From positions 372,001-436,000 of the forward strand of contig NZ_CP032696.1 of NCBI RefSeq assembly GCF_003627755.1: a stretch of 64,000 nt of DNA, read 5' to 3'. The position numbers and the translations under genes were made by a program. The notes below the pieces were generated by a model. That model saw only the letters and a list, made by a program, of their open reading frames with translations. It ran no database searches and had not been told where the DNA came from. The stretch comes from Rhizobium jaguaris (GTDB lineage Bacteria > Pseudomonadota > Alphaproteobacteria > Rhizobiales > Rhizobiaceae). Positions 4,759 through 23,281 of this stretch are shown here, piece after piece (the stretch's first letter is position 1; each line of letters opens with the position of its first letter).

Positions 4759-5574
4759 CTACCGTTTTTCCTTGGAGCGCTTCCGCATATCCGACTGACG
4801 AGCACGGGATGCTGGCAAGTCGCGATGAACGGTTTCCAGCGCTTCAAGCCAAGGGGCTGCCGCGTTTGTCCGCGCGAGATAGTCTAGCCCGGTCTTCGTG
4901 AAAGTTCCCGGAGTTGCTATAGCGTCAGAAATCGCAGCGAGCGAGACATCCTGCCGTAATGCTGCATAGGCGGCCGCTCCGGCGATGTTACCCGCAGCCA
5001 TCACCCGGGCCTGGTCTGGCCTGAGTCCACGCTCGGCAAACCAATTTTCCAGCTTAGCGATGAAGCGGTAAGTCCAGCCCGCCAAACAGGCTCCGATCAT
5101 CGCGAGGTCGAGTTGGTCCTCGGTGCCGAGAACTAAGACTTTGCCGGCCGCAGCCAAAACGGCTTCGACGTCCGGACATGCGGGAAACATGGGAATAAGG
5201 CCGTCATCAATGGCCTCGATGTAGCTTGATGGCATGATGCGCACGACCCGGATGCTGTCGCCTTTTGCGGCACGAAGTTCCGCGGTCGTGATACCGGCGA
5301 CGGCTGAAATGAGCGTCTGGTTCGGCCGTAGCGTCAGCGTAGACAATGCGAAGGCGAGTTGCTCCGGCCGCACTGCAAGTAGGACCCAGTCGGCTTGCTC
5401 AGTCAAACTGACGTCGTCCACTGCGACAGGACAATCATAACGGGTCGAAAGGTCGCGAGCCTTTTTTAGGTTGTGCGGCGAGAGTAGGATCCGCCCGGTA
5501 TGGCCACCCCTTCGCAGGGCAGCAATCAGGTAGGCGGAAAAATCTCCAGTGCCAATAACCCCTATAGTCGTCAT
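4759..5574 (-). CDS. Pyrroline-5-carboxylate reductase-like oxidoreductase
   Basis: About 271 residues beginning with MTTIGVIGTGDFSAYLIAAL, a Rossmann NAD(P)-binding start of the ProC family. The chain continues with the family pattern: ADWVLLAVRP in the first half, an ISAVAGIT stretch, VVRIMPS (compare VRxMPN in ProC), and a helical C-terminal half ending near ATPGTFTKTGLDYL (compare PGGTTxxGL). The ATG at 5574 has GGAG 7 bases upstream; a longer frame to 5607 has none. It is the last gene of the minus-strand operon with the ABC importer and probably reduces an imino acid or cyclic imine made during catabolism (inference). Confidence 0.65.
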   Translation of the reverse strand: MTTIGVIGTGDFSAYLIAALRRGGHTGRILLSPHNLKKARDLSTRYDCPVAVDDVSLTEQADWVLLAVRPEQLAFALSTLTLRPNQTLISAVAGITTAELRAAKGDSIRVVRIMPSSYIEAIDDGLIPMFPACPDVEAVLAAAGKVLVLGTEDQLDLAMIGACLAGWTYRFIAKLENWFAERGLRPDQARVMAAGNIAGAAAYAALRQDVSLAAISDAIATPGTFTKTGLDYLARTNAAAPWLEALETVHRDLPASRARQSDMRKRSKEKR

Positions 5575-5692
5575 CGCATGACTCCATATGCCTATTCGCA
5601 GAAACACCGCCCCCGGGAGAGGCGGGTGCCTTTGGAACCTCGAGCCGCGCAGCTATCGCTGAAATGTCCGTAAAGGGAAGAGACCTTCCGGA

Positions 5693-6442
5693 TTAGACCA
5701 GCTGACTGTCTGCCTCCATCGCATCGAGACGGGACAACACCATCGCCAGATGTGATTTGTGAACGGTGGCCACCAAGCGAACATCTCTCAGTTCGAGGCT
5801 TCGGCGGATCATTCGTAGCTCATCCAGAAGGTCTTCGACCTGCTGACGAAAATTCATCTTTTCCAGAAGCAAAAACCAGAACCTTGCCGATTGAAAGAAC
5901 AAGATATCGTTGAAGTCTCTAAGCGGTCCGTTGCTGCTCAAGCCGTGCAGGATCTTATGCAGGCAGATAATGATTTCGGCGAATTGCCGTTTATCTTTGC
6001 CATCCAATAGCTGGCGGCAGGACTGTTCCAACTCTTGAATTTCGTCGAGAATGTCGTCGGTTACCGGAAGCGGTGACGATTCCGCCATCGCGTCCATCAG
6101 CCGCATGCGCACGATATAGATGTCTCGCATCGAACTGAGGTCGATCGAGGTGACCTCAGTTCCGTTGCCGTGCTGGCTTACGATCAGACCGTCATACTCC
6201 AGCCGTTGCAAAACGGTGCGCAGCGGCGTTCGGCTGACACCGAACTCCGAGGCGAGCTCCCTCTCATTGAGCCGGCTACCCGGCTGATAGTCGAGAAGGC
6301 AAATCCGCCGTCTCAGTTCCAGGTATATTTCCTGCTTACTCATTTTGCCGGCGGACCTCTCTTCTTCCGAGGACCCATCGTGAGCGTCGTTCAAGGGGAC
6401 GACGCCGACGCCGTTGGAGAGTGGGAATTCGCTACTCGACAT
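5693..6442 (-). CDS. GntR-family regulator (FCD-type)
   Basis: About 249 residues. After a 40-residue leader comes a winged helix-turn-helix (IYLELRRRICLLDYQPGSRL, then ELASEFGVSRTPLRTVLQRL), the classic GntR signature. The C-terminal two thirds are all-helical as in FCD effector-binding domains, which usually bind small acids or amino acids. The ATG at 6442 has AAGGAAG just upstream; a longer frame to 6508 overlaps the preceding gene. It lies inside the importer operon and is the obvious candidate to control the divergent promoters at 10.36-10.57 kb, where two GGT-N2-ACC palindromes are found. Confidence 0.8.
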   Translation of the reverse strand: MSSSEFPLSNGVGVVPLNDAHDGSSEEERSAGKMSKQEIYLELRRRICLLDYQPGSRLNERELASEFGVSRTPLRTVLQRLEYDGLIVSQHGNGTEVTSIDLSSMRDIYIVRMRLMDAMAESSPLPVTDDILDEIQELEQSCRQLLDGKDKRQFAEIIICLHKILHGLSSNGPLRDFNDILFFQSARFWFLLLEKMNFRQQVEDLLDELRMIRRSLELRDVRLVATVHKSHLAMVLSRLDAMEADSQLV

Positions 6443-6482
6443 ATTGATCTTCCTTGCGCCCCCTTTGGTCCGCCGTGCTTCG

Positions 6483-7286
6483 TCACGTTCCGATGCGTAA
6501 TACAGCATTGAGCTGACGCAAGTACGCTATAACGCTTTGCGACGTTATCCGACCAGTGGCCGGGTTTTCGTCACTCGGCCGGTTCTGAATCGACATCGAA
6601 AAATCAGAACTGTCGGATCGAACGCTGACCGTGTGGGTGTTTACCTGCAGACCAGGGTCTGCCCAGATTTCCATCTTCGTGCGATCCGGTCCAACTCCGG
6701 CCAAGCTGACCGCTGCCGCTACGTTGACGTTTGCAGGAAATTCCCGGGCAACTTCGCTCACTGTTCCCTGTAGGATGCAGACAGCGTCCCGAAGGTTCTC
6801 CAGGTTCACCCCGTTTCGTACAATATAGGGAGCAGCCAATAGGCTTGCCGGAGGCTTCCTGGTGACGATCCTCACCTCGTGGATCTTTCCAACTGCAACC
6901 GCCTTGATCGCATCAAGCCCCAACATCGCGCCAGATGGGATGACAATTCGCGCTCCAGACGAACGAGCCAGATCCGCGAGATCATTTCTCGTGAGAAGTT
7001 GGCTCGCGGACATCGCGATAAGCGTCTTGCCTGCATTGAGGACGGGAAGCGCAACAAGCTCGAAGATCTGTGGAGGCAGTGCCTCGAGCACGACGTCGCA
7101 CTCGCTCGCCAACTCGTGCGGCGACAAATTTGGGACGCGTACCGTCAGGTGGCGGACGAATTTTTCAGCACGGTCCGCATTGCGCGCTGAAAAGGCGCCC
7201 AGCCGGCATCCCTCGATGTCTCCCCGATCCAGCGCCTTTGCCACTGTTGAGCCGACGGCCCCGATGCCCGCTATTCCAACTTTCAT
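6483..7286 (-). CDS. L-aspartate dehydrogenase family protein
   Basis: About 267 residues, starting MKVGIAGIGAVGSTVAKAL, a Rossmann fold with GxGxxG. The central part (CDVVLEALPP, SARGARIVIPSGAMLGLDA-like text at residues 110-130) and the C-terminal block VNVAAAVSLAGVGPDRTKME match the aspartate dehydrogenase / NadX family. Members interconvert L-aspartate and iminosuccinate/oxaloacetate plus ammonia with NAD(P)H. The start at 7286 has GGAG a few bases upstream and lies 13 bases after the ATPase stop, so it is co-transcribed with the importer. In this operon it could either degrade aspartate or reduce iminosuccinate produced by the dehydratase at 19.8 kb (inference). Confidence 0.75.
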   Translation of the reverse strand: MKVGIAGIGAVGSTVAKALDRGDIEGCRLGAFSARNADRAEKFVRHLTVRVPNLSPHELASECDVVLEALPPQIFELVALPVLNAGKTLIAMSASQLLTRNDLADLARSSGARIVIPSGAMLGLDAIKAVAVGKIHEVRIVTRKPPASLLAAPYIVRNGVNLENLRDAVCILQGTVSEVAREFPANVNVAAAVSLAGVGPDRTKMEIWADPGLQVNTHTVSVRSDSSDFSMSIQNRPSDENPATGRITSQSVIAYLRQLNAVLRIGT

Positions 7287-7299
7287 CGCTGCTCCAACG

Positions 7300-8115
7300 T
7301 CAATCCGCTGCCTTGACCGCACTCAGAAACTGCTGCGTTCGTTTGCTTTGAGGATTGGTGAACAGCTCATCGGGCGAATTTTGCTCCTCGATCTTGCCGG
7401 CATAGAAAAAGCAGATCCGGTCCGATATGTCTCGTGCAAATCCCATCTGGTGGGTCACCATCAACATCGTCAACTTATGCTTCGGCACCAGGTCCTTGAT
7501 GACATTTGTAACCTCGCCGATGACTTCCGGATCGAGCGCCGACGTCACCTCATCGAACAACATGACCTTCGGCCTCATCGCCAAGGCACGGGCTATCGCC
7601 ACGCGTTGTTGCTGGCCGCCGGAAAGACGAGCGGGATGCTGATCCTTCTTGTCGATCATACCCACCAAGGAGAGAAGCTCTTCCGCGCGCCCTCGTGCAT
7701 CTTGGCGTGACAGCCCCAGCACCTGCACAGGTCCCTCCATACAATTTTGGAGGGCCGTCATGTGCGGGAACAAATTGAAGTGTTGAAAGCACATGCCGAT
7801 CGACGATCGGGCCTTGCGGAGATACTTGGCGTCGGCCGGGACCAGAACACCGTTTTTTGGCATATGGGTCAGCGGCTTTCCGTCAACGTAGATCACGCCG
7901 CCATTGATCTTTTCGAGCGTCATCAGCATACGCAGAACAGTCGTTTTGCCCGATCCTGACGGTCCGATTACCGTGACCAGCTCGCTCGGCGCCACATCGA
8001 GGTTGAGATTGTCGAGCACGACGAAGTCGCCGTAAGTTTTTCTTACGTTCATGAAGCGCACCATCGGGATGTCCGGGCCGGTGAGTTCAAGCGGAAAGGA
8101 GGAGAGGTCTTCCAT
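7300..8115 (-). CDS. Amino-acid ABC transporter ATP-binding protein
   Basis: This 271-residue ATPase has Walker A GPSGSGKT, the Q-loop in MCFQHFNLFPH, the signature LSGGQQQRVAIARAL, Walker B VMLFDEVTSALDPE and the switch histidine in VTHQMG. That is the HisP/GlnQ/EhuA class, which powers polar amino-acid and ectoine importers at the inner membrane. The start codon overlaps the upstream permease stop by one base, showing tight translational coupling. A 24-residue extension precedes the conserved start of the domain. Confidence 0.9.
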   Translation of the reverse strand: MEDLSSFPLELTGPDIPMVRFMNVRKTYGDFVVLDNLNLDVAPSELVTVIGPSGSGKTTVLRMLMTLEKINGGVIYVDGKPLTHMPKNGVLVPADAKYLRKARSSIGMCFQHFNLFPHMTALQNCMEGPVQVLGLSRQDARGRAEELLSLVGMIDKKDQHPARLSGGQQQRVAIARALAMRPKVMLFDEVTSALDPEVIGEVTNVIKDLVPKHKLTMLMVTHQMGFARDISDRICFFYAGKIEEQNSPDELFTNPQSKRTQQFLSAVKAAD

Positions 8116-8780
8116 CAGTACATTCCTAATTTGCGACGGACCCAGGCTTCGAAGCCACGGATCGCGCTAGCCGAGACCAGCGAGATGACTAGAAAGATGA
8201 TGCCTACAATCGTGTAAGGCTCGAGATAGCGGTAGTTTTGTCCCCCTATCGCGTTTGCCGTCTGCATGAGCTCAGCAACGCCGATGACCGAAAGCATGGG
8301 CGTATCTTTGAATATCCCGACCAGATAATTGCCCATTCCGGCTACGGACGGCGGGAGCGCTTGTGGTAGAATCACGCGCCTGTAAGTCTGCACGGTTGAC
8401 AGATTGATCGCCGTGCAGGCTTCCCATTGGCCTTTGGGAACGGCTTCCATCCCGCCTCTATAAACCTCGGAAAGGTATGCGGCGTAGTGGAGGCCGATAG
8501 CGATCATGCCTGCCACCCAAGGGCTAAGCGAGATCCCATATTCCGGGCCGACGAAGTAGACGAAAAAGATTTGCAGCACGAGAGGGGTCGAGCGCAGAAA
8601 CTCCACCATCTCCCGTATTGTAAGCGTCAGGGGGCGAAACGGTGTGCGTTGGGCGACCGCCAATACCAGACCAAGCACAGCCGCAATCGCGTAGCCGATG
8701 CCCGCTGCCATCAATGTGTTCAGCGTGGCCCAAAGCATGCGGGGAAGGATCTCAGTTGTGAATTCCCAGTTCCATTGCAT
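8115..8780 (-). CDS. Amino-acid ABC transporter permease (second)
   Basis: 221 residues with the HisM/HisQ permease fold: five or so hydrophobic helices and the inner-membrane coupling motif EVYRGGMEAVPKGQWEAC (EAA loop), followed by RRVILPQALPPSVAGMGN. It forms the channel together with the permease encoded 3 bases upstream and takes energy from the ATPase encoded immediately downstream. Typical of importers for polar amino acids and for ectoine in rhizobia. Confidence 0.9.
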   Translation of the reverse strand: MQWNWEFTTEILPRMLWATLNTLMAAGIGYAIAAVLGLVLAVAQRTPFRPLTLTIREMVEFLRSTPLVLQIFFVYFVGPEYGISLSPWVAGMIAIGLHYAAYLSEVYRGGMEAVPKGQWEACTAINLSTVQTYRRVILPQALPPSVAGMGNYLVGIFKDTPMLSVIGVAELMQTANAIGGQNYRYLEPYTIVGIIFLVISLVSASAIRGFEAWVRRKLGMY

Positions 8781-8783: not shown

Positions 8784-9449
8784 TCAAGTCCTTCCCAGTC
8801 GACGCGCCATGACCCGTTCCATCAAACGCATGAACGGCGTGATCAGGAACCGAGCGAAGATGTAATAGATGACGAGAGCGGTTCCGAAAGTCCACGTGGA
8901 TAGATAGGTAGAGTTATTGAGCTGCCGCGCTTCGAACATGAGATCCGGTACCGCGATGAGGGCGACGAGAGCGGTACTTTTCAGCAGTTCGATCACCAGG
9001 TTGCCCCATGCCGGCAGCATGATGGCCAGCGCTTGGGGAATTATGATCCGCCGCATGCGCCTTGCAGGAGGCATCGACAATGCATAGGACGCCTCCCATT
9101 GGCCGCGGGGTACCGACTGGATCGCGCCCCGGACAAGTTGGGCGCCATAGGCGCCGAGATTGAGCCCGACTGCCAGGAAACCCGTGAGAAAGGGGTCCAG
9201 CGTGACCCCAAAGAGCGGCAGCACAAAAAAGAGCCAGAAAAGCTGAACGAGGAGCGACGTGCCGCGAAAAAACTCGACGTAGACTACGGCCGCCGCCTTC
9301 ACAGCGAGTTGCGATGACAACAGCATAAGGCCGAAAACGTGCGCGAGCACAGTCGCCAGCGCCAAAGAACATAGAAACAGCAGTCCGGTGACGAGCGCGC
9401 CGTCAATAAAGCGGCCGCCGTACTCAGAGATGAACGAGATATATGCCAT
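8784..9449 (-). CDS. Amino-acid ABC transporter permease (first)
   Basis: 221 residues with hydrophobic helices and the EAA coupling loop (QLVRGAIQSVPRGQWEAS, then RRIIIPQALAIMLPAWGN), the same family as the next gene. The pair make a heterodimeric inner-membrane channel. It lies 62 bases after the binding-protein gene, which is normal for amino-acid importer operons where the binding protein is made in excess. Confidence 0.9.
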   Translation of the reverse strand: MAYISFISEYGGRFIDGALVTGLLFLCSLALATVLAHVFGLMLLSSQLAVKAAAVVYVEFFRGTSLLVQLFWLFFVLPLFGVTLDPFLTGFLAVGLNLGAYGAQLVRGAIQSVPRGQWEASYALSMPPARRMRRIIIPQALAIMLPAWGNLVIELLKSTALVALIAVPDLMFEARQLNNSTYLSTWTFGTALVIYYIFARFLITPFMRLMERVMARRLGRT

Positions 9450-9511: not shown

Positions 9512-10357
9512 TTATCGGTTTGAGCAAACCCAATCGGTCTTAGCGTCGCCCGGAAGCTGAGCCTTGGTGTACTGAAACTTGCCCACAGCCTCGAGCATCT
9601 CGGGAGTGCCGAGATATTTGGCCTGGGCTTCATTGTAGGCTTTGAGGAAGTCCTTGTCTTCCTTCTTGAACGCGATTGCGACCCAGTTGAAGGTCCATTC
9701 GGGAAGGGCGGATGAGTCTGTCACTTCGATGTCATCGGGAGCACTTTTGACGAGGTCCTTCATCGCGAAGTCGTTGCCGGCGCCCGCGTCGGCACGACCT
9801 GCTTTGACAGCGGCAAGAACTTCCGTGAGGCTCGGAAGCTGCATGATCTTGTCTTCGGCTACCCCTTCCTTGAGCGCCGCATCGACGTTTACGAAGCCCG
9901 CGACGGTCGCCATCGCCGAGTCGTTCTTCTTGATGTCCTGGTATGTTTCGATGTGCTTCGGGTTACCCTTCTTGACGATGAACGAATCGCCGAACTTGCC
10001 CATCGGCTCAGCAAAGCTCACGTTGGCGCAGCGTTTGCCGGTGATGTACATGCCGCCGGTAATGATATCGAAACGACCAGCCTGCAGCCCTGGGATCAAG
10101 CCGCCCCAGTCGGTCACGACCGGCTCGATGTTGGTGTACCCCATGGATTTCAGGACGCCGAGAGCGAGAGCGTTCGCGAAGCCCAACGGCTCATTTTTGT
10201 CGCCCGGGTAGGCCCAGGGAATTTCGTGAGCAAAGCCAATCCGGATCGATTTTCCGGCTTTGGCGCGGTCGGTAAGATCATCGGCATTGGCGTGAGAGAC
10301 ACCGACAAAGAGAGCGCTCGCGGCGGCGATTGCGGTGAAGATGTTTGTCATTCTCAT
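9512..10357 (-). CDS. Periplasmic solute-binding protein, EhuB-like
   Basis: 281 residues with a Sec signal peptide (hydrophobic stretch to about residue 24, ending SHANA). The mature part is the SBP_bac_3 fold. The text GGLIPGLQAGRFDIITGGMY followed by ITGKRC closely resembles EhuB, the ectoine/hydroxyectoine binding protein of Sinorhizobium (established family). Whether the ligand is ectoine or another compatible solute cannot be told. The ATG at 10357 has GGGGG 5 bases upstream. It opens the minus-strand operon and is divergent from the M24 gene. Confidence 0.8.
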   Translation of the reverse strand: MRMTNIFTAIAAASALFVGVSHANADDLTDRAKAGKSIRIGFAHEIPWAYPGDKNEPLGFANALALGVLKSMGYTNIEPVVTDWGGLIPGLQAGRFDIITGGMYITGKRCANVSFAEPMGKFGDSFIVKKGNPKHIETYQDIKKNDSAMATVAGFVNVDAALKEGVAEDKIMQLPSLTEVLAAVKAGRADAGAGNDFAMKDLVKSAPDDIEVTDSSALPEWTFNWVAIAFKKEDKDFLKAYNEAQAKYLGTPEMLEAVGKFQYTKAQLPGDAKTDWVCSNR

Positions 10358-10398: not shown

Positions 10399-10408
10399 TG
10401 GTGTACCA
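10399..10408. promoter_or_regulatory. Candidate GntR operator upstream of the importer operon
   Basis: The sequence TGGTGTACCA has inverted TGGT/ACCA half-sites around two bases and lies 41 bases upstream of the importer start. GntR/FCD regulators commonly bind sites of the GT-Nx-AC type. A related site (AGGTATACCT) sits at the same distance from the divergent gene. Confidence 0.5.
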
Positions 10409-10527: not shown

Positions 10528-10537
10528 AGGTATACCT
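10528..10537. promoter_or_regulatory. Candidate GntR operator upstream of the M24 operon
   Basis: AGGTATACCT is a perfect 10-base palindrome, 37 bases before the ATG at 10575. It shares the GGT-N2-ACC core with the site at 10399-10408, so the two operons are probably under one regulator, most simply the GntR protein encoded at 5693-6442 (inference). Confidence 0.5.
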
Positions 10538-10574: not shown

Positions 10575-11732
10575 ATGACGTACCAATCACCGTTTCCCCA
10601 GGACGAACTTGATCGCCGCCTCGCCAAAGCGAAAAGGGCTTTGGTGGATAACAACCTTGATGGCGTCGTGATTTCCGTCCCGGAAAACATCTACTATTTG
10701 ACCGGATTGGATCATTGGGGCTTCTTCGCAGCGCATGTCCTTGTGCTGAACCGGAATGGGGAAATGGCGCTGAGCTGCCGCGCCATGGAAAGGATCACCG
10801 TCGAGAACCAGGTAACGAACGCGAAGTTCTACGGGCATAAGGACCATGAAGAACTCTCCGACTACGTTCATCAGGCGATGAAGGATCTGGGGCTTGCCGG
10901 CGCGCGCGTGGGTATCGAAAAGCGCAGCCTTTTTCTCACGGCGCGGCATGCTGAACGTATCCAGGCAGACGGCACTGGCGTTGTCTGGGTCGATGCCTCC
11001 GGGATCCTCGACGATATCCGTCTCATCAAGTCCCCGCTGGAAATGGAATATACCCGAAAGGCCGCCCACGCCGTCGACCTGGGAACGTTGGCAGCTGTCG
11101 AGGCGGTTCGGGACGGCGCGTCGGACTACGAGGTCGCCGCGGCTTATCACCACAAGATGATCCTTGAGGGCAGCGAATATCCAGGCTTCGGTCCGTTTAT
11201 CCGTCCGACCAGCCGCCTCGGCGAGGAGCACACCACATGGCGCGGTGAGATATTCCGGAACGGCGATGCCGTCTTCCTTGAAACCTGCGCAGCCTATCGC
11301 AAATATCAGTCGCCGATGGGCCGATTGGTCTATGTGGGGAGTGCGCCGAAGGGCGTTGAAGCGTCCGCCGAATTAGCCATCCGAGGCATGAAAGCGATTT
11401 GCGACGCGCTCAAGCCCGGTGCGGAAGCCGGCGACGCCTACGAAGCGTGGCATGAAGTGGCAGCCAGCGCAGGCCTTGTCGATTATCACCGCCATCACTG
11501 CGGCTACCTTGTCGGGATCGGCTTCCCGCCAAGCTGGACAGGCGGCTCGATGGTCACCAGCCTGTTCCCGAAGTCTACCCGCAAGATTGAAGTCGGCATG
11601 GTCGTGCACGCTCACTCCTGGTTCACCAACACCAAGGTCGCCGACTATTTCATTTCCAACACCGTCATGGTGACGGAGAACGGCGGCGAGATCCTGACGA
11701 ACAAAACGCCCGAGACTCTGATCGTACGCTGA
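10575..11732 (+). CDS. M24-family hydrolase resembling ectoine hydrolase (DoeA)
   Basis: 385 residues with the creatinase/aminopeptidase P layout: an N-terminal domain (NIYYLTGLDHWGFFAAHVLV) and a C-terminal pita-bread domain (RLIKSPLEMEYTRKAAHAVD onwards). The GYLVGIGFPPSW motif is like the GYPIGLSYPPDW text of ectoine hydrolase DoeA rather than the peptidases. The usual five metal ligands are not obvious, as in creatinase and DoeA, which cleave C-N bonds without that metal pair. GAGG lies 7 bases before the ATG. It probably opens a cyclic or amidino compound brought in by the importer (inference). Confidence 0.7.
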   Translation: MTYQSPFPQDELDRRLAKAKRALVDNNLDGVVISVPENIYYLTGLDHWGFFAAHVLVLNRNGEMALSCRAMERITVENQVTNAKFYGHKDHEELSDYVHQAMKDLGLAGARVGIEKRSLFLTARHAERIQADGTGVVWVDASGILDDIRLIKSPLEMEYTRKAAHAVDLGTLAAVEAVRDGASDYEVAAAYHHKMILEGSEYPGFGPFIRPTSRLGEEHTTWRGEIFRNGDAVFLETCAAYRKYQSPMGRLVYVGSAPKGVEASAELAIRGMKAICDALKPGAEAGDAYEAWHEVAASAGLVDYHRHHCGYLVGIGFPPSWTGGSMVTSLFPKSTRKIEVGMVVHAHSWFTNTKVADYFISNTVMVTENGGEILTNKTPETLIVR

Positions 11733-11799: not shown

Positions 11800-12015
11800 A
11801 TGCAGAAACTGACCAAAGACACGCTGACCGGCATCTGCGCGCAGATGGCATCGCACAGCTGGTCTGAAGCTGAAATCAACGAGCTGGTTGATCCTCAATT
11901 GGGAATAATCACAGGGTTCCAAGATTTGCTCAGCGAACTCGAACAGCTCCGAAAAATCGATCTCGGGACTACGCCCCCTGCAATGAGCGTTCAAGGTGCA
12001 GACAGGCATGACTGA
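11800..12015 (+). CDS. AtzG-like small subunit (DUF4089 type)
   Basis: About 71 residues. It has the size and pattern of AtzG, the GatC-like partner that stabilises the amidase AtzE: a helical piece around LTGICAQMASHSW and a later helix QDLLSELEQLRKIDL, then PAMSV close to the end. Two adjacent ATGs exist (11797, 11800); GGGAGG gives normal spacing to the second. It overlaps the amidase start by 8 bases, as expected for subunits made together. The assignment rests on position, size and pattern. Confidence 0.65.
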   Translation: MQKLTKDTLTGICAQMASHSWSEAEINELVDPQLGIITGFQDLLSELEQLRKIDLGTTPPAMSVQGADRHD

Positions 12016-13414
12016 CAATATCGCATTCCAAGATGTACGGAGCCTGAAGTCGATGCTTCAGGGCGGACAGATAACGCCATCGGAATTGGTGGACACCTTC
12101 GCGGAACGCATCGAGCGACATAACGGGCTGTCAAAAGCGTTCATCACGACGACGATCGATGCCGCGCGCGAAGAGGCAGCGACCGTGTCGCGCGGCGACT
12201 TGGATCGTTCGCCCTTTGCTGGAATACCTTATGCCTCCAAGGATTTGTTTGACGTCCAGGGCGTATTGACGACTGCGGGGTCCAAGGTCTTCCATGATCG
12301 GGTCGCAAAGACCGACGCCTATGCAGTCGCCAAGCTGCGCTCGGCCCAGGCGATCAGTTTGGGCAAAACCAACCTGCATGAATTCGCCTACGGCGCGACC
12401 GGTGAAAACGAGGTCTACGGCACCGCCGTCAACGCATACGATGCGACGCGTCTTGCGGGGGGATCGTCGAGCGGTTCGGCCGCTGCAGTCGCTTTCGGCC
12501 TCGTTCCGGCGGCGCTTGGAACCGATACCGGCGGGTCAGTTCGTGCCCCGGCAGCACTCAACGGGCTGGTTGGGCTCAAGCCAACGATCGGGCGGGTCCC
12601 CACTTCAGGGGTCGTTCCTTATTGCTGGACCCTCGACCACGTCGGATTGATGACCCGAACGATCGCTGACTGTGCGGATCTCCTCGGTATCGTGGCCGGC
12701 TACGATGCGAGCGACTCCACGTCGGTCAACCGTCCGGTCGACAACTACACCGAGGCACTTAGTCAAGAAATAGCTGGTGTACGCGTCGGCATCCCCCGCA
12801 ACTTCTACTACGACCGAGCCGACGACGAGATCCTGACTGCCCTTGAACGGGTGAAACAGTATCTCGTCTCATGCGGCGCCAAGCTAGTGCCGGTGACCTT
12901 CCCGGACATGGAGCACAGCCGCACCGTTTCTCTAACCGTGCAAATGCCCGAAGCGCTCAGCGCGCACTCGGCCTATCTGCAGGAACGAGGCGAGCTCTAC
13001 GGCGCGGATTTCCGGGCCGGCCTGGCGCTAGGGCAATGCATCCTTGCGGAGCACTACGTGAAGGCGAAGCGATTTGTCGAAGTTTATCGCCAGCAGACGA
13101 ACAAACTCTTCGACGACGTCGACCTGATTCTTACTCCAGCAACGCCGGAGATTGCGCAGAAGGTTGGCACCGTCAAGGTAAGAAGGAATGGTATCGACGA
13201 GGCAGTGGGCAACGCCATAACCCGCTATACGACGTTCTTCAACATGACCGGGCACCCAGCTTTGACGATGCCATGCGGGATGCACACGGAAGGCCTCCCG
13301 ATCGCATTGCAGCTCGTGGGCCGCTACTTCGACGAAAAGACGGTCTTGCGGACCGCGCACGCCATCGAGCGCAGCGAAAGGTTCTCAATCCCGCGACCTA
13401 AGGTGGACAGGTGA
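12008..13414 (+). CDS. Amidase-signature hydrolase, AtzE/GatA-like
   Basis: About 468 residues with the full amidase-signature core: catalytic Lys in PYASKDLFD, the Gly/Ser stretch GGSSSGSAAAVAFG, and the nucleophile region DTGGSVRAPAALNG, so the Ser-cisSer-Lys triad is present. The C-terminus (GHPALTMPCG, then EGLPIALQLVG) is also typical. The AtzG-like gene in front suggests a GatCA-like heterotetramer such as AtzEG, which hydrolyses carboxybiuret; the true substrate here is unknown and is probably an amide released in the pathway. I prefer the ATG at 12008 over the GTG at 11996. Confidence 0.85.
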   Translation: MTDNIAFQDVRSLKSMLQGGQITPSELVDTFAERIERHNGLSKAFITTTIDAAREEAATVSRGDLDRSPFAGIPYASKDLFDVQGVLTTAGSKVFHDRVAKTDAYAVAKLRSAQAISLGKTNLHEFAYGATGENEVYGTAVNAYDATRLAGGSSSGSAAAVAFGLVPAALGTDTGGSVRAPAALNGLVGLKPTIGRVPTSGVVPYCWTLDHVGLMTRTIADCADLLGIVAGYDASDSTSVNRPVDNYTEALSQEIAGVRVGIPRNFYYDRADDEILTALERVKQYLVSCGAKLVPVTFPDMEHSRTVSLTVQMPEALSAHSAYLQERGELYGADFRAGLALGQCILAEHYVKAKRFVEVYRQQTNKLFDDVDLILTPATPEIAQKVGTVKVRRNGIDEAVGNAITRYTTFFNMTGHPALTMPCGMHTEGLPIALQLVGRYFDEKTVLRTAHAIERSERFSIPRPKVDR

Positions 13415-14889: not shown

Positions 14890-15165
14890 ATGAAAATCAT
14901 GACATGCCCTCTGAACGGGCCGCGCAACATCACAGAATTCCAGTGCCACGGCGAGGTCCATCAGCAACCGGATCCCGCGACCACAGGCGACAAAGAATGG
15001 GCAGCCTATATCTGGATGTCCAACAATACGGCGGGGGTCGTACGCGAGTGGTGGTGTCACACACCTACAAATTTTTGGTTCCTCGCAGAACGCAACACGA
15101 TGACCGATGAAATTTTGGCCACGTTCCCCATACCGGCAGATGGACCTCTGGGAGAGGTGTTATGA
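14890..15165 (+). CDS. soxD: Sarcosine oxidase subunit delta (variant zinc motif)
   Basis: 91 residues, the small zinc-binding subunit that helps assemble the heterotetramer. The usual CPxCG start is CPLNG here, so the second Cys of the pair is replaced by Asn; Cys19, Cys56 and His57 remain. The rest (ITEFQCHGE, VVREWWCHTPTNFWFLAER, TDEI) fits a variant branch of the family. The 3' end overlaps soxA by 4 bases. Confidence 0.85.
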   Translation: MKIMTCPLNGPRNITEFQCHGEVHQQPDPATTGDKEWAAYIWMSNNTAGVVREWWCHTPTNFWFLAERNTMTDEILATFPIPADGPLGEVL

Positions 15166-18047: not shown

Positions 18048-18673
18048 ACATGGGCGCTGTTGCGAAAAGCCCATTCGGCCACCGCTTCGACCAAGCGGCG
18101 CCGGTCAGAAACGACAAAGGGGTTATCATCCGTGATTTTTCCCGGTTGGGGCGGACAGGTTTTAAGGGTGCGGGCACGACGGAATGGCTGACGACGAAAG
18201 TCCGCATCCTCCCAGATCGCCCGAACAGGGCTGTCGCTTCTGCTGACAGCGCTTTGATCGCGCGTTTGGGAAAAGAAGAATATCTCATCCTCGATCAGAA
18301 AGTTGCAGGACGCGAATTCTGCAGCGACCTGGAGGCCGCCTGGAATGCTGACAGCGCGCAGGGCGCTACCCGGATCGGCTACCCGCTCCCTCGCGCTGAC
18401 AGCCACAGTTGGCTTTATCTGGAGGGAAACTCTGTCGCACAGATGATGTCGAAGATCTGCGGGGTCGATCTGCGTGATGGCAAATTCGAACCAGGAGAGG
18501 TGGCGCAAACGGTTGTGGCACGGATCGGCGCGGTCTTGATCCGTCAAATGGACAAGGGTTCCTACGGGATCCACATGCTGACGGATTTCGCCTCGGCCGA
18601 TTACCTCTGGGATGTGCTGGAAGATGCTTGCGCAGAATTCGGCGGTGGCTTTGCCGGAACCGGGAGGACGTAA
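18044..18673 (+). CDS. soxG: Sarcosine oxidase subunit gamma
   Basis: 209 residues of the SoxG family: RLGKEEYLILDQKVAGREF in the first half, AGEVAQTVVARIGAVLIRQ-like text, and FASADYLWDVLEDA near the end. It is a GcvT-like structural subunit of the heterotetramer. It starts with a 4-base overlap to soxA and its stop lies directly in front of the aldolase gene, whose ribosome-binding site is inside the end of soxG. Confidence 0.88.
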   Translation: MNMGAVAKSPFGHRFDQAAPVRNDKGVIIRDFSRLGRTGFKGAGTTEWLTTKVRILPDRPNRAVASADSALIARLGKEEYLILDQKVAGREFCSDLEAAWNADSAQGATRIGYPLPRADSHSWLYLEGNSVAQMMSKICGVDLRDGKFEPGEVAQTVVARIGAVLIRQMDKGSYGIHMLTDFASADYLWDVLEDACAEFGGGFAGTGRT

Positions 18674-18674
18674 A

Positions 18675-19757
18675 ATAGTTACGTTTCACTTCAATTCGGA
18701 CAACGGTGTTCCGGTCTGCGAACAGGTGATGGCGGCTCTGATCAGCTGCAACCATGGTATTGAGACTGCCTACGGTGCCGACCAATATACAGCGCGACTA
18801 GGACCTGCCTTCTCCGACTTCTTTGAGCGCGAAGCGTTTGTTTTTCCAGTGCCCACAGGCACCGCCGGAAATGGGCTGGCTCTCGGTGCCATTACCCCGC
18901 CCTACGGCACCATCTTCTGCCACGAGGGCGCACACATCGTGACGACGGAGGCCGGCGCGCCCGAGTTTTACAGTGGTGGCGGCCGGATGACTTTGCTTTC
19001 TGGCGACCATGATAAAATATCGGCCGAAACGTTGGCTCAGGCCCTGCAAAATCACGGCATCGGCAATGTGCACCACATGGCCGCCAGTGCGATCAGCCTC
19101 ACTCAGGCAACGGAGGCAGGTGTCGTCTACGAGCCGGCCGAATTGCAGGAATTGAGCGCGGTCGCCCATAATGCTGGACTGAAGGTCCATGTGGACGGAG
19201 CACGTTTGGCAAATGCGATAGCCCATCTCGGGGTCTCCCCTGCGGAGGCAACCTGGAAATCAGGCGTCGATATTCTGACCTTCGGTACGACCAAGAATGG
19301 AACAATGAATGCGGAAGCCGTCATTACTTTCGATCCGGAGATCGCCGGCCGGCTGACATTCATGCACAAGCGTGCTGGCCACCTGTTTTCGAAGATGCGC
19401 TACATGTCGGCTCAACTCCTCAGCTACCTGGAGGGGGATGTATGGCATCGAAATGCTTCGCAGGCGAACCGGAATGCGGCGCGGGTTGTGAATGCTTTGA
19501 AACAGTGCGCCGATGTCCAGGTGGCGTATCCAGTACAAATCAATGAAGTGTTCGCCATGCTGCCGCCCACCCTCACGGAGGCTCTCCGGCAAAGGGAGAT
19601 TCAGTTGCGGCCGTGGAACCTGAAAGGCGCGGGCCAAGGATATCGCTTGGTGATGTCCTATTGCGACAGCGCCGACGACATCCGGCTGTTCGAGGAAGCT
19701 TGCGGCTCAGTGCCAACTTCTCGACGGCCACTTGATCCGGACAACGCCGACGTTTGA
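18675..19757 (+). CDS. ltaE: Low-specificity L-threonine aldolase-like enzyme, start codon unusual
   Basis: About 360 residues of the beta-eliminating lyase / LtaE fold: TFHFNSDNGVPVC at the start, HEGAHIVTTEAGAPEF, HVDGARLANAIA, and the PLP lysine in FGTTKNGTMNAEAV. Such enzymes split or form beta-hydroxy amino acids (threonine, allo-threonine, hydroxyaspartate) from glycine plus an aldehyde. No ATG, GTG or TTG exists at the family start; a perfect GGAGGA (18663-18668) is followed at 6 bases by ATA (18675). Upstream in-frame ATGs (from 18612) lie inside soxG without a good site. ATA may be a rare start or a mutated ATG. Confidence 0.85.
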   Translation: MVTFHFNSDNGVPVCEQVMAALISCNHGIETAYGADQYTARLGPAFSDFFEREAFVFPVPTGTAGNGLALGAITPPYGTIFCHEGAHIVTTEAGAPEFYSGGGRMTLLSGDHDKISAETLAQALQNHGIGNVHHMAASAISLTQATEAGVVYEPAELQELSAVAHNAGLKVHVDGARLANAIAHLGVSPAEATWKSGVDILTFGTTKNGTMNAEAVITFDPEIAGRLTFMHKRAGHLFSKMRYMSAQLLSYLEGDVWHRNASQANRNAARVVNALKQCADVQVAYPVQINEVFAMLPPTLTEALRQREIQLRPWNLKGAGQGYRLVMSYCDSADDIRLFEEACGSVPTSRRPLDPDNADV

Positions 19758-19815: not shown

Positions 19816-20781
19816 ATGCTTGAATTTTCCATGATCCTAAAGGCTTCCCAGGTCCTTGCGGGCGTCACCCGGGTCACGCCCTTACTTGAATCTGAACTGC
19901 TTAACCGCAAAATCGGCTTCCGTCTTCTTGTCAAAGCAGAATGCTTGCAGCGCACGGGGTCATTCAAAATCCGCGGCGCCTACGTCAAGATCGCTTCGTT
20001 GAGCACCGAAGAACGCGCCGCCGGCGTGGTGGCCTTCTCCTCAGGAAACCATGCACAAGGCGTTGCGGCCGCGGCCACCGAGATGGGGGTGCCCGCGACA
20101 ATCGTCATGCCGGAGGACGCACCTGCAGTGAAGTTGCGCAATACTGCGGAGTATGGCGCAAAAGTCATTACCTATGATCGTGTGACAGGAGACCGAGCGA
20201 AGATTGCACGAGACATAGCGGCCGAAACGGGTGCAACCTTGATCCCTCCATACGACGATTATGTTTTGATGTCGGGGCAAGGCACAATCGGTCTCGAAGT
20301 TGCAGACCAGCTGGCGAAGCTGAAAACGTCTGCAGACGCTCTCGTGTGCCCGGTCGGCGGCGGCGGGCTGATCGCGGGAATAGCGACCGCGATGGCACAA
20401 GCCTCTCCCGGCACCAAAATCTATGCTGCCGAACCAGAACACTTCGACGATACCAAGCGCTCGCTGGTGGCGGGAAAACGCATCGGAAACGAGCCCGGTC
20501 ACAGTTCGATCTGCGATTCCATCGTGACGCAAATCCCTGGCGAAAACACCTTCCCCATCAACCAGAAACTGGTTGCCGAGGGGTATGCGGTTTCAGAGGC
20601 CGATGTCATCGCTGCGATGCATACGCTTGCGGACGATCTGAAAATTGTTGCCGAACCAGGCGGCGCCACCGCTGTTGCCGCCGTTTTGCGGGACCGAAAG
20701 AGGTGGAGAGGCAAAACGGTTGTTGCGATCGTATCCGGAGGGAATGTCGATCTCGATACCTGGCGCGGCTATCTGACTTGA
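19816..20781 (+). CDS. Threonine dehydratase-like PLP enzyme (EutB/BhcB type)
   Basis: About 321 residues, one catalytic domain and no ACT regulatory domain, so it is catabolic. PLP lysine in RTGSFKIRGAY, SSGNHAQGVA substrate loop, and the phosphate-binding GGGGLIAGIA. The family covers threonine/serine dehydratases, serine racemase, EutB of hydroxyectoine use, and BhcB that dehydrates beta-hydroxyaspartate. Substrate is not decidable from sequence. It follows the aldolase and is accompanied by RidA downstream, which would clear the enamine made by such a dehydratase. The ATG at 19816 was chosen because the fold begins soon after. Confidence 0.8.
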   Translation: MLEFSMILKASQVLAGVTRVTPLLESELLNRKIGFRLLVKAECLQRTGSFKIRGAYVKIASLSTEERAAGVVAFSSGNHAQGVAAAATEMGVPATIVMPEDAPAVKLRNTAEYGAKVITYDRVTGDRAKIARDIAAETGATLIPPYDDYVLMSGQGTIGLEVADQLAKLKTSADALVCPVGGGGLIAGIATAMAQASPGTKIYAAEPEHFDDTKRSLVAGKRIGNEPGHSSICDSIVTQIPGENTFPINQKLVAEGYAVSEADVIAAMHTLADDLKIVAEPGGATAVAAVLRDRKRWRGKTVVAIVSGGNVDLDTWRGYLT

Positions 20782-20912: not shown

Positions 20913-21797
20913 ATGACCACCTATGTCCTTACCGCAACCTGCCAGTCTACGAGAGGAATTGTAGCAGCCATCTCCGGATTTCTCTGCGAAATGGGCTGCA
21001 ATATCGTCGATAGCTCGCAGTTCGATGACCTTAGTACCGGCCGATTTTTCATGCGTGTCTCTTTCGTCTCGGAAGAAGGGATCGGCGCCGAAGCACTCAC
21101 CGAGGGTCTCAAGCCAATCGCCGAGAAGTTCCGCATGGAGGCGGAGCTACATCTTCAAACGCAAAGAATGAAAGTCCTCCTGATGGTATCCCGGTTTGGG
21201 CACTGCCTAAACGACCTCCTTTACCGCTGGCGTATCGGGGCACTGCCGATCGACATCGTCGGGGTGGTCTCGAACCACTTTGACTACCAGAAGGTCGTGG
21301 TGAACCACGATATTCCCTTCCACCATATCAAGGTGACGAAGGAAAATAAGCCGCAGGCCGAAGCGCAGCTTTTGGACCTTGTGGAGCAGACCGGCACCGA
21401 GCTCGTCGTGCTTGCACGCTATATGCAGGTATTGTCGGATGCGATGTGCCGAAAAATGTCCGGCAAGATCATCAATATTCATCACTCCTTCCTGCCGAGC
21501 TTCAAGGGTGCCAACCCCTACAAGCAGGCCTATGAGCGCGGCGTGAAGCTGATCGGCGCGACGGCACACTATGTCACTGCCGATCTCGACGAGGGGCCGA
21601 TTATCGAGCAGGATACTGTCCGGATCAACCATGCGCAAAGCGCCGAAGACTATGTCTCGATAGGTCGCGACGTCGAAAGCCAAGTGCTTGCGCGCGCCAT
21701 TCACGCTCACATCCACCATCGTGTCTTCTTGAACGGCAATCGAACAGTCGTTTTTCCGGCCAGCCCTGGCAGCTACGCGTCGGAGCGTATGGGATGA
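20913..21797 (+). CDS. purU: Formyltetrahydrofolate deformylase
   Basis: 294 residues. The N-terminal ACT domain (residues 1-80, [20 protein letters not shown]) is followed by a formyltransferase fold with [20 protein letters not shown] and a metal-free catalytic stretch [17 protein letters not shown], so it belongs to PurU. It hydrolyses 10-formyl-THF to formate and THF. It overlaps folD by 4 bases; together with FolD it turns the methylene-THF from sarcosine oxidase into formate and frees THF. Confidence 0.93.
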
Positions 21798-22729
21798 GGC
21801 GTGCAACGATCATCGACGGAAAAGCGGTCGCGGCTTCGGTAATCGACGTGGTGAAGACCGCGGCTGCGGCCCTGGAGCAGCAGGACGGCGTCACGATTGG
21901 CCTGGCCGTCATTATTGTCGGCGATGATCCGGCAAGCCACACCTATGTGACCTCCAAGAGCCGCATGGCCAAGGAGTGCGGCTTCAAATCAGTTCAGCAC
22001 ACCCTGCCGACACATACGAGCCAGGGCGATCTCGCCACCTTGGTGAACACGCTCAATGCGGACAGCACCGTTCACGGTATATTGGTCCAATTGCCGCTGC
22101 CCACGCATCTCGATAGCGAAGCAATCATCCAGGCGATCCAGCCGGAAAAGGACGTTGATGGCTTGAGCGTCGTCAACGCCGGCAAGCTTGCAACCGGAGA
22201 CCTCAAGACCGGGCACGTTTCGTGCACACCGGCCGGTGCGATGGTTTTTGTTCGGCGTATCCATGGTGAGGATCTCTCCGGCCTTACCGCGGTCGTTATC
22301 GGCCGCTCGAATCTGTTCGGCAAGCCGATGACTCAACTGCTGCTCAATGCCAATGCGACGGTAATGACGGCTCATTCGCGTACAAAAAACCTTCCCGACA
22401 TCTGCCGCCAAGCCGATATCCTCGTGGCGGCCGTCGGCCGTGCCGAAATGGTCAAGGCCAGTTGGGTGAAGGAGGGCGCCACCGTGATTGATGTCGGCAT
22501 CAACCGCGTCGCCGCGCCAGAAAGCGGCGTGGGAAAGACACGTCTGGTCGGAGACGTTGCTTTCAGCGAAGTGGCCGAGGTCGCCGGAATTATCACACCT
22601 GTGCCAGGCGGCGTGGGTCCCATGACAATCGCGATGCTGATGGCAAACACGGTTATCGCGGCTTACCGTTCGGTTGGCAGAAACCTCAGCCCGAAGCTGG
22701 AGTTATGGCCCAGTCAAGATAGCGCCTAA
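21794..22729 (+). CDS. folD: Methylenetetrahydrofolate dehydrogenase/cyclohydrolase
   Basis: 311 residues of the FolD family: [65 protein letters not shown] and [14 protein letters not shown]. It oxidises methylene-THF to methenyl-THF and hydrolyses this to 10-formyl-THF. The usual CTPLG is CTPAG. A weak hairpin (22718-22739, GATAGC/GCTATC) overlaps the stop and could end the transcript, although no T-tract follows. Confidence 0.93.
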
Positions 22730-22843
22730 TTGGGCTATCGAATGTTGCATTGAATTGAGGTGCCCATCCAATCGAGCAGCGTCATCGGCAACGCTCCGTG
22801 AGTCACCTAGAAAAAACCTTCATTACCACAGGAATGCTGGCGC

Positions 22844-23281
22844 ATGAAAAGAACGGGCCATTTCAACACGCCAATTGCCAATGGCAATTATCTTATCGCA
22901 AAGCGGCATCGGGACTTGGTGTTCACCTCGGGCATGACTCCGCGATCAAAAGGCGTGATCGTCCATGTCGGGACGGTGGACAGCGAGGATGCGATCGATG
23001 ACTACAAGGATGCGGTTGAACTCGCCGCTTCAAATGCCCTTGCCGCAGCGCGAACGGTCCTCACCGAAGGGGAACAGATCGCGGGTGTCTTGACCTTGAC
23101 TGTTTTCATCGCAGCAAACCCGGGTTTCAAGAAACATTCGCAGATTGCCGATTTTGCTTCGGACCACCTGTTGGAAGAGATCGGACCCGGTGCGATTGGC
23201 ACGAGGGCGGCAGTGGGCGTGACCTCGTTGCCTGGAGGGGCTGTCGTCGAAATTCAGATGACCGCCGTTATCGGAAATTAG
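22844..23281 (+). CDS. RidA/YjgF-family enamine deaminase
   Basis: 145 residues. The start resembles other RidA proteins of the YjgH branch (SGMTPRSKG, GTVDSEDAIDDYKDAVELAA, VFIAANPGFKKHSQIADFAS, GTRAAVGVTSLPGGAVVEIQ). The catalytic Arg of the family fits GTRAAVGV. RidA hydrolyses reactive enamines or imines released by PLP dehydratases. It is separated from folD by about 110 bases but runs in the same direction and closes the catabolic set. Confidence 0.85.
   Translation: MKRTGHFNTPIANGNYLIAKRHRDLVFTSGMTPRSKGVIVHVGTVDSEDAIDDYKDAVELAASNALAAARTVLTEGEQIAGVLTLTVFIAANPGFKKHSQIADFASDHLLEEIGPGAIGTRAAVGVTSLPGGAVVEIQMTAVIGN

What the first reader, a model, noticed from the sequence alone, without database searches (positions are those of the whole stretch)
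4759..23281. A possible new catabolic route: N-methyl amino acid use linked to a beta-hydroxyaspartate-like bypass
Two divergent operons join an EhuB-like importer, an ectoine-hydrolase-like M24 enzyme, an AtzG/AtzE-like amidase, sarcosine oxidase, L-threonine-aldolase-like and threonine-dehydratase-like enzymes, RidA, FolD, PurU and an aspartate dehydrogenase. Established: sarcosine oxidase gives glycine and methylene-THF; FolD and PurU turn that to formate; known BhcB (dehydratase) and iminosuccinate reductase make aspartate from glycine plus glyoxylate through beta-hydroxyaspartate. Inference: here LtaE could replace BhcC and aspartate dehydrogenase could replace BhcD, giving a variant of that cycle fed by a methylated compatible solute. 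BhcA-like transaminase is not present.
Basis: partly seen in the sequence, partly recalled or inferred. Interest (0 to 1): 0.72.

Follow-up and report, generated by a model that had tools for sequence, protein, structure and literature searches.

The report
Plasmid operons for a methylated solute
A rhizobial plasmid carries a conserved set of genes that appears to import and break down an unidentified N-methylated, ectoine-like compound, probably ending in aspartate; the genes are real and shared with marine relatives, but neither the compound nor the proposed glycine-to-aspartate cycle is shown.

Summary
The genes are real. Two divergent operons on a 0.55-Mb contig of an 8-Mb Rhizobiaceae genome encode an Ehu-type importer, aspartate dehydrogenase (AspDH), GntR, a DoeA-type M24 hydrolase ("M24x"), amidase, SoxBDAG, an L-threonine-aldolase-type enzyme (LtaE), a 3-hydroxyaspartate-lyase-type dehydratase (THAL), PurU, FolD and RidA. 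The set recurs in rhizobia and, rearranged, in roseobacters and a Roseibium-type genome. Of 15 loci read, AspDH is in 14 (broken in 2), Sox 14, LtaE 14, THAL 13.

New here: a palindrome, GGTATACC and variants, lies before M24x in 15 of 15 such loci (twice in 14) and 0 of 19 other M24x contexts. In the two roseobacter loci lacking the amidase it also precedes a class-I amidotransferase, a probable replacement.

N-demethylation with C1 release is well supported. The glycine-plus-glyoxylate cycle is not: no protein of the genome reaches the BhcB cut-off, AspDH persists without THAL, and M24x and LtaE relatives associate with hydroxyectoine genes. Preferred, unproven reading: the solute itself yields (3-hydroxy)aspartate. 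Against it, Sox beside M24x elsewhere passes sarcosine-oxidase cut-offs. Substrate unknown; nothing assayed. A new variant of compatible-solute catabolism.

The parts
4759..5607 (-). P5CR/ProC-like oxidoreductase, role unknown
   Evidence: PF03807 and PF14748; NCBIfam P5CR models far below cut-off; elsewhere in another gene group (L010) or a remote relative (L020)
5693..6508 (-). GntR/FCD regulator, candidate owner of the palindromes
   Evidence: PF00392, PF07729
6483..7322 (-). L-aspartate dehydrogenase
   Evidence: NF009825 321.7 bits > 253; PDB 1H2H/1J5P, 2DC1; in the cluster in 14 of 15 loci, broken in 2
7300..8115 (-). EhuA ATPase
   Evidence: TIGR03005 384 > 345
8115..8780 (-). EhuD permease
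   Evidence: TIGR03003 283 > 205
8784..9449 (-). EhuC permease
   Evidence: TIGR03004 234 > 197
9512..10357 (-). EhuB substrate-binding protein
   Evidence: TIGR02995 203 > 191; keeps Glu/aromatic/Arg positions of 2Q88 (roles recalled)
10400..10407 (.). operator-like palindrome 1 (GGTGTACC)
   Evidence: conserved across loci
10529..10536 (.). operator-like palindrome 2 (GGTATACC)
   Evidence: only exact copy in the window, 0.10 expected; conserved
10575..11732 (+). M24x: DoeA-type M24 hydrolase, apparently metal-free
   Evidence: PF00557; nearest PDB DoeA 6TWK; clade and residues
11800..12015 (+). 71-aa small protein (AtzG-like by position only)
   Evidence: conserved in 9 aligned loci; no family match
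12008..13414 (+). amidase-signature hydrolase, AtzE/GatA type
   Evidence: PF01425 375 bits; NF006631 350 < 461
13640..14878 (+). SoxB
   Evidence: TIGR01373 449 bits, below cut-off; 2GAG_B E 4.5e-111
14890..15165 (+). SoxD
   Evidence: PF04267
15162..18047 (+). SoxA with GCV_T folate domain
   Evidence: TIGR01372 865 bits, below cut-off; 1VRQ_A E 5.6e-132; PF01571
18050..18673 (+). SoxG
   Evidence: TIGR01375 40.5 bits, below cut-off; no Pfam match
18672..19757 (+). LtaE-like PLP aldolase (exact start uncertain)
   Evidence: PF01212; nearest PDB 7YVR, 1V72
19816..20781 (+). THAL: PLP dehydratase, best model threo-3-hydroxy-L-aspartate ammonia-lyase
   Evidence: NF005454 322 < 452; tree
20913..21797 (+). 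PurU
   Evidence: TIGR00655 340 > 286
21794..22729 (+). FolD
   Evidence: NF010785 476 > 396
22844..23281 (+). RidA family
   Evidence: PF01042

Best explanation
A catabolic regulon for a small N-methylated zwitterion of ectoine-like type. EhuBCDA imports it. M24x, a DoeA-type hydrolase without the usual metal ligands, opens or cleaves it. The amidase (or, in Ruegeria and Shimia, a class-I glutamine-amidotransferase-type enzyme) hydrolyses an amide. SoxBDAG removes the N-methyl group as methylene-THF, which FolD and PurU turn into formate. The demethylated product is an aspartate-family amino acid: 3-hydroxyaspartate is dehydrated by THAL to iminosuccinate, which AspDH reduces to aspartate or RidA/water turns into oxaloacetate; LtaE offers a second exit to glycine and glyoxylate. 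The GntR protein controls both operons through the GGTATACC palindromes. Supported by sequence and comparison: gene families, conservation, the palindrome pattern, the interchange of the two amide hydrolases and the repeated M24x-Sox pairing. Inferred only: the substrate, the order of steps, every reaction specificity, the direction of LtaE and AspDH, and that this GntR binds these sites.
For: Gene families. Of 15 loci read: AspDH in the cluster in 14 (2 with in-frame stops), Sox 14, LtaE 14, THAL 13, Ehu 13, AtzE-type amidase 13; M24x in 15, but loci were partly picked by M24x or LtaE. AspDH and THAL adjacent in Ruegeria and Shimia. Palindrome in front of M24x in 15 of 15 of these loci (two copies in 14), 0 of 19 other M24x contexts. 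The two loci lacking the amidase have a GATase1 gene with the palindrome upstream, 2 of 2. M24x is linked to Sox in two Sox lineages. The genome holds three other SoxA over cut-off and a separate true ectoine cluster, so the window set is a specialised extra. M24x lacks four of five prolidase metal ligands and the creatinase Glu pair and keeps the DoeA-type Glu in 8 of 8 (roles recalled). THAL scores 322 on the 3-hydroxyaspartate-lyase model, a true EutB 230.
Against: I can name no known compound that fits. THAL and its nearest kin tested (4 of 4 outside the cluster) are below the 3-hydroxyaspartate-lyase cut-off, and a true BhcB scores higher on that model, 358. The Sox subunits beside M24x in L151 and in Shinella pass the sarcosine-oxidase cut-offs (SoxA 1204 and 1207 > 1164, SoxB 609 and 666 > 529), which points to sarcosine, hence glycine, there. 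R. albus has M24x, amidase, LtaE and AspDH without Sox, THAL or Ehu in the stretch read. The AspDH of L151 has an in-frame stop, that of L018's genome is in two pieces with stops, and the L014 cluster has lost it, with EhuA also broken; that genome's AspDH lies beside another Ehu set. M24x of 65-71% also occurs without most of these partners (L152, L153, L155, L170, L171). THAL plus AspDH is equally compatible with the bypass.
Confidence: 0.38

Rival explanations
1. One reading: Sox makes glycine, LtaE joins glycine with glyoxylate to 3-hydroxyaspartate, THAL makes iminosuccinate and AspDH reduces it to aspartate, a non-homologous remake of BhcC and BhcD.
For: LtaE, THAL and AspDH occur together in the cluster in 12 of 15 loci (AspDH broken in one of them); THAL and AspDH adjacent in Ruegeria and Shimia; Sox with PurU and FolD gives glycine if the substrate is sarcosine, and related Sox sets beside M24x pass the sarcosine-oxidase cut-offs.
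Against: No gene with a known glyoxylate-making role and no BhcA-like gene in the cluster; no BhcB over cut-off in the genome; THAL outside the BhcB clade; AspDH kept without THAL (L021) and, with a stop, without LtaE and THAL (L151).
Confidence: 0.24
2. A hydroxyectoine-type diamino acid route: M24x opens a cyclic amidine, the amidase deacylates, and LtaE splits a beta-hydroxy diamino acid into glycine and an aminoaldehyde, while THAL plus a reductase dehydroxylates it as EutB plus EutC are proposed to do.
For: The Ehu genes score over ectoine cut-offs; a second M24x group lies in clusters with EutB and EutC (L067, L073-L077); P0076 fuses an LtaE relative to an EutA-type domain (217.6 bits, cut-off 318); EutA-type genes diverge from M24x in L170 and L171 (199 bits); an EutE-type gene (228 bits, cut-off 403) near a more distant LtaE in L032.
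Against: Leaves SoxBDAG, PurU, FolD and AspDH unexplained; no Ssd or DoeD-type gene in the cluster; the genome already has a full ectoine cluster; THAL scores below EutB cut-offs (210/413) and lies outside the EutB clade.
Confidence: 0.16
3. A creatine-type substrate: M24x cleaves an N-amidino- or N-acyl-sarcosine and Sox oxidises the sarcosine.
For: M24 includes creatinase; M24x is often next to Sox, as in the compact Shinella set of GntR, importer, two M24 genes and SoxBDAG, whose SoxA and SoxB pass the sarcosine-oxidase cut-offs.
Against: M24x lacks the creatinase E262 and E358 equivalents and falls far from creatinase in the tree; LtaE, THAL and AspDH would be unexplained except through the bypass.
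Confidence: 0.13

Closest known systems
Ectoine/5-hydroxyectoine utilisation (ehuABCD-eutABCDE/doeABCD)
   Same: Ehu importer, M24 hydrolase of DoeA type, a PLP dehydratase of the EutB superfamily beside a reductase, GntR-superfamily regulator, end product probably aspartate.
   Different: No DoeB, DoeC, DoeD, EutA or EutC in the cluster; M24x is its own clade; an amidase, Sox, LtaE, AspDH, PurU and FolD are added; the true ectoine cluster is elsewhere in the same genome.
Beta-hydroxyaspartate cycle (bhcABCD)
   Same: A dehydratase that may act on 3-hydroxyaspartate and a reductase that may act on iminosuccinate.
   Different: No BhcA-like gene in the cluster; THAL is not BhcB; the reductase is NadX-type AspDH and the aldolase LtaE-type (what BhcC and BhcD are is recalled).
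Heterotetrameric sarcosine oxidase SoxBDAG with PurU/FolD
   Same: Four subunits, flavin-site His, folate-binding GCV_T domain, C1 enzymes next to it.
   Different: A separate long-stem clade, below the SoxA and SoxB cut-offs, beside three canonical SoxA in the genome.
L-threonine aldolases of the 7YVR/1V72 type
   Same: Fold-type I PLP aldolase, same Lys motif.
   Different: The cluster members form a group of about 57-83% identity to the window protein, against about 50-56% for the next hits; the gene neighbourhoods of the metagenomic members were not read.

Membership tests
Beta-hydroxyaspartate cycle | BhcB dehydratase | tested here: not met
   Best genome match is the window THAL, 259.6 bits against 550; outside the BhcB clade of 9
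Beta-hydroxyaspartate cycle | BhcA-type aspartate-glyoxylate aminotransferase in the cluster | tested here: not met
   No aminotransferase among the genes of 4759-23281; the rest of the genome was not searched for BhcA
Beta-hydroxyaspartate cycle | BhcC aldolase and BhcD reductase in the cluster | tested here: not met
   The only aldolase and reductases there are LtaE-type, NadX-type and P5CR-like; genome not searched for BhcC or BhcD
Beta-hydroxyaspartate cycle | Condensation of glycine and glyoxylate | not testable with these tools
   needs an enzyme assay
Ectoine utilisation | EhuABCD importer | tested here: met
   all four over the TIGRFAM cut-offs; the EhuB of the true ectoine cluster scores far higher, 346 against 203
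Ectoine utilisation | DoeA/EutD ectoine hydrolase | tested here: not met
   M24x 151 and 195 bits against 613 and 575; separate clade
Ectoine utilisation | DoeB, DoeC/Ssd and DoeD | tested here: not met
   no such gene in the cluster; present on another replicon
Heterotetrameric sarcosine oxidase family | SoxB, SoxD, SoxA and SoxG in one run, SoxA with GCV_T domain | tested here: met
   SoxG weak
Heterotetrameric sarcosine oxidase family | Scores over the curated subfamily cut-offs | tested here: not met
   SoxA 865/1164 and SoxB 449/529
Creatinase | Guanidinium-binding Glu262 and Glu358 (numbering and roles recalled) | tested here: not met
   aligned positions differ in 8 of 8 M24x
L-aspartate dehydrogenase | Curated AspDH model | tested here: met
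   NF009825 321.7 > 253; Ruegeria 308 and R. albus 309
threo-3-hydroxy-L-aspartate ammonia-lyase | NF005454 cut-off | tested here: not met
   best-matching model but 322 < 452; activity untested

The most novel reading that the evidence does not exclude
An undescribed, operator-defined catabolic pathway, shared by rhizobia and marine alphaproteobacteria, for an unrecognised N-methylated (3-hydroxy)aspartate-type cyclic osmolyte. It would join ectoine-type ring hydrolysis, interchangeable amide hydrolases and folate-linked demethylation to a 3-hydroxyaspartate node drained by a dehydratase plus aspartate dehydrogenase and by an aldolase.
Probability: 0.27. Interest if true: 0.68.

Novelty: new variant of a known kind. 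Interest (0 to 1): 0.5.

Why it matters
If right, an unrecognised N-methylated solute is used by legume symbionts and marine bacteria, and the conserved set gives a way to find it: the binding protein, the regulator with its palindromes and the M24 hydrolase can each serve as a probe. It would also add 3-hydroxyaspartate as a catabolic node outside the known cycle. A practical point: the database names seen here (ectoine transporter, Xaa-Pro peptidase, threonine aldolase, sarcosine oxidase) would mislabel much of the set.

Tried and rejected
Creatinase was considered for M24x and set aside on residues and tree. Membership of the ectoine cluster was set aside because the true cluster is elsewhere in the genome. 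The true BHA cycle was set aside. A profile search for a structure match to the small protein gave only E > 1 hits. Draws for M24x, the starting genome counted in each: class, 3 of 385 at E 1e-70; family, 30 of 394, of which 28 at 43-50% identity and one at 70%; order, 6 of 397 at E 1e-130; the family of R. albus, 3 of 394 at E 1e-130. Paper searches for this combination found no description: 0 papers; 3; 0; 2; 2; 0; 359, 10 listed; all seen as listings only. (homarine), 43 and 44 were background. Preprints and most subscription journals are not in that library.

Loci. The 15 are the window, L011, L149, L009, L010 (=L016), L015, L017, L105 (=L012), L014 (with L172), L018, L104 (=L019), L101 (=L020), L102 (=L022), L021 (with L103) and L151. 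They were found by DNA match, LtaE or M24x, so the presence of those genes is partly by selection. For L015, L017 and L018 the AspDH comes from the genome search, on the same contig. For L014 and L018 only EhuB of the importer was seen at first; one search added the rest for L014. Not counted and not read through: H3/H4 (one strain deposited twice), H23 and L013 (a 4.2-kb fragment). The 19 other M24x contexts scanned for the palindrome are L152-L155, L170, L171, L150, L066, L073, L077, L067, L068, L075, L071 and L069, L070, L072, L074, L076; L155 has only about 150 bases upstream of M24x. In tree scripts, tblastn pieces with stops, pieces under 70% of the query and copies of the window's own genes were left out.

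I therefore lowered the main reading from 0.42 to 0.38 and the novel case from 0.30 to 0.27, and raised the bypass from 0.22 to 0.24 and the sarcosine-type rival from 0.10 to 0.13.

Full report
Observation. The leftward run is, from the centre, ehuB, ehuC, ehuD, ehuA, aspartate dehydrogenase (AspDH), a GntR/FCD regulator and a P5CR-like oxidoreductase. The rightward run is an M24 hydrolase (here M24x), a 71-aa protein, an amidase, soxB, soxD, soxA, soxG, an L-threonine-aldolase-type gene (LtaE), a threonine-dehydratase-type gene (THAL), purU, folD and a RidA family gene. The importer genes, AspDH, PurU and FolD pass curated cut-offs; M24x, amidase, SoxA, SoxB, SoxG, LtaE and THAL are clear family members but fall below them. 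The label AtzG for the 71-aa protein rests on size and position only. On the right, a Tn3-type transposase lies at 24154-27038.

Genome context. The window is on a 550,563-base contig of an 8.03-Mb, four-contig genome; the nearest record in the plasmid collection is from Rhizobium sp. CB3171 (94.5% over the whole interval). The same genome has a full ectoine cluster on another contig: DoeA 808 bits, EutB 510, EutC 552, DoeB 608 and EhuB 346, all over cut-off, with Ssd- and DoeD-type genes named by position and family. It has three SoxA proteins over cut-off (1587, 1420 and 1390 bits, against 864 for the window copy). No protein reaches the BhcB cut-off. So the window set is an extra, specialised system and not the cell's ectoine or standard sarcosine pathway.

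Conservation. A scan with an LtaE alignment gave 22 loci. Ten of them, in Sinorhizobium, Mesorhizobium, Rhizobium, Pararhizobium, Ruegeria, Shimia and Roseovarius, carry partner genes; an eleventh (L013) is a 4.2-kb fragment with a close LtaE. I read 15 loci of this type in all, the window included (listed in Tried and rejected). Counts: AspDH in the cluster in 14 of 15, with in-frame stops in two (L018's genome, L151) and lost in L014, whose genome keeps a 71% copy beside another Ehu set; SoxBDAG 14; LtaE 14; THAL 13; Ehu 13; amidase 13. Roseovarius albus has only M24x, the small protein, amidase, LtaE, AspDH and GntR in the stretch read. A Roseibium-type genome (L151) has GntR and AspDH opposite M24x, small protein, amidase and a Sox set of another lineage, without LtaE or THAL of this type; its best LtaE match elsewhere is 42%. 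In Ruegeria and Shimia the order is ehuBCDA-AspDH-THAL-GntR, which ties THAL to AspDH.

Palindromes. The intergenic regions between ehuB and M24x align poorly between rhizobia and roseobacters except for two short palindromes, GGTATACC and the variants GGTGTACC/GGTACACC, one near each start. In 14 of the 15 loci there are two copies upstream of M24x, 127-129 bases apart in 11 rhizobial loci and 105, 106 and 146 in the other three; R. albus has one. None lies next to M24x in 19 other M24x contexts; in one of them, L155, only about 150 bases upstream are available. The exact 8-mer occurs once in the whole window, with 0.10 expected. In Ruegeria and Shimia, where no amidase was found in the stretch read, a class-I glutamine-amidotransferase-type gene next to GntR has the palindrome upstream (8567 in L101, 3196 in L102), and a relative of it (56%) directly follows M24x in L154. 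I read this as replacement of one amide hydrolase by another. That the GntR protein binds these sites is inference.

M24x. Nearest solved structures are ectoine hydrolase DoeA (E 7e-35), then prolidases; creatinase is much weaker. In an alignment of 17 sequences, 8 M24x proteins lack four of five prolidase metal ligands and the creatinase Glu positions (roles recalled) and share with 3 DoeA sequences a Glu at the first ligand position; they form one clade (100/100), apart from DoeA. It splits into the window type and a second type found in hydroxyectoine-like clusters of Rhizobiaceae: beside EutB and EutC (L067, L074, L075, L076), or with DoeA-type genes and SoxBDAG (L066, L073, L077, L150). 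Shinella sp. WSC3-e (L150) has the most compact form: GntR, Ehu, two M24 genes and SoxBDAG. A partial window-type M24x (69%) in L072 lies near GATase1-, DoeD-, Ssd-, EutA- and EutB-type genes.

Sox. The window-type SoxA forms a clade of 14 rows (13 loci) on a long stem. The SoxA of L066, L073, L077, L150 and L151 form another clade of 5 on the canonical side, so M24x has paired with two Sox lineages. The landmarks visible in the alignments (RSNY, ARHD and GFK in SoxB, DDG in the folate domain) match the solved enzyme (roles recalled). With FolD and/or PurU alongside in the rhizobial loci, N-demethylation with release of the C1 unit as formate is the best supported part. The methylated substrate is not known. 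The Sox of L150 and L151 pass the sarcosine-oxidase cut-offs, which argues for sarcosine there; the window type does not pass them.

THAL, AspDH, LtaE. THAL groups with other dehydratases whose best model is threo-3-hydroxyaspartate ammonia-lyase, apart from 9 BhcB and 9 EutB sequences. It is below that model's cut-off (322/452), as are its 4 nearest kin tested outside the cluster (307-326); a true EutB scores 230 but a true BhcB 358, so the score does not single out one reading. AspDH is a NadX-type family member over cut-off. LtaE belongs to a subfamily whose nearest structures are L-threonine aldolases 7YVR and 1V72. A 53% LtaE relative, P0076, is fused to an EutA-type domain (217.6 bits against a cut-off of 318); an EutE-type gene (228 against 403) lies near a more distant LtaE in L032, and a weaker DoeB relative (36%, no NCBIfam match at E 1e-60) in L025; EutA-type genes diverge from M24x in L170 and L171 (199 bits each, below cut-off). 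The literature proposes that EutABC act on hydroxyectoine or its open-chain intermediates (PMC5924519 and PMC13188858, passages read). These links suggest that LtaE and THAL handle a beta-hydroxy amino acid delivered by the solute.

Reading. The gene set is explained most economically if M24x and an amide hydrolase release an N-methyl amino acid of the aspartate family, Sox demethylates it, THAL plus AspDH (or LtaE) process the 3-hydroxy form, and AspDH links to oxaloacetate. It is not excluded, but it needs glyoxylate from an unnamed source, has none of the Bhc proteins in the cluster, and does not explain AspDH in clusters without THAL. Against my own reading: no known compound fits, the L151 argument rests on an AspDH with an in-frame stop, one cluster has lost AspDH, R. 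albus lacks Sox nearby, related Sox look like sarcosine oxidases, and M24x occurs in several places without most of these partners. No enzyme activity, expression or growth was tested.

Novelty. In the seven paper searches for this combination (listings only) I found no description of the cluster. I rate it a new variant of compatible-solute catabolism of moderate interest, because substrate and direction are open but directly testable.

Noticed in passing
L150 (Shinella sp. WSC3-e plasmid), 7809-19085: Compact set of GntR, EhuADCB, two M24 genes and SoxBDAG, a second type of M24-Sox system; related sets sit beside or inside ectoine-type clusters in L066, L073 and L077.
   Followed up: partly
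P0076 (metagenomic protein, 614 aa): LtaE-type aldolase fused to an EutA-type domain, suggesting that such aldolases act on hydroxyectoine-like intermediates.
   Followed up: partly
L172 (Mesorhizobium loti UFLA 01-765), 5934-9401 and 11683-12856: A second EhuB (78% to the window's) with its own pair of the palindrome (9281, 9401) beside a P5CR-like and an M24 gene; in the main cluster next to it AspDH is missing and EhuA reads in two pieces.
   Followed up: partly
L129 (same contig as the window, C3:297000-316900): Another ectoine-like set on the same plasmid-like contig: EhuB (about 45% to the window EhuB), AsnC-like regulator, M24 hydrolase (NF038259 344 bits, below cut-off), DoeD-like and Ssd-like genes.
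   Followed up: no
L154, 6289-13000: Ehu genes followed by two PhyH-type dioxygenases (one by eye), M24x and GATase1, with no Sox in the stretch; the dioxygenases might replace Sox.
   Followed up: no
window 13416-13628: Short frame that looks by eye like a leftover of an amidase C-terminus; in five rhizobial loci (L149, L105, L014, L018, L104) this gap holds a GlxA/GbdR-type regulator instead.
   Followed up: no
L014 4777, L018 4765, L105 9082: A further copy of the palindrome upstream of soxB in three of the five loci that have the GlxA-type gene.
   Followed up: no
window 3972-4451 (+): Aspartate 1-decarboxylase (PF02261, 126 bits) just outside the cluster; not annotated beside it in L009, L010, L011 or L149.
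   Followed up: no
window 24154-27038 (-): Tn3-type transposase split over two frames.
   Followed up: no
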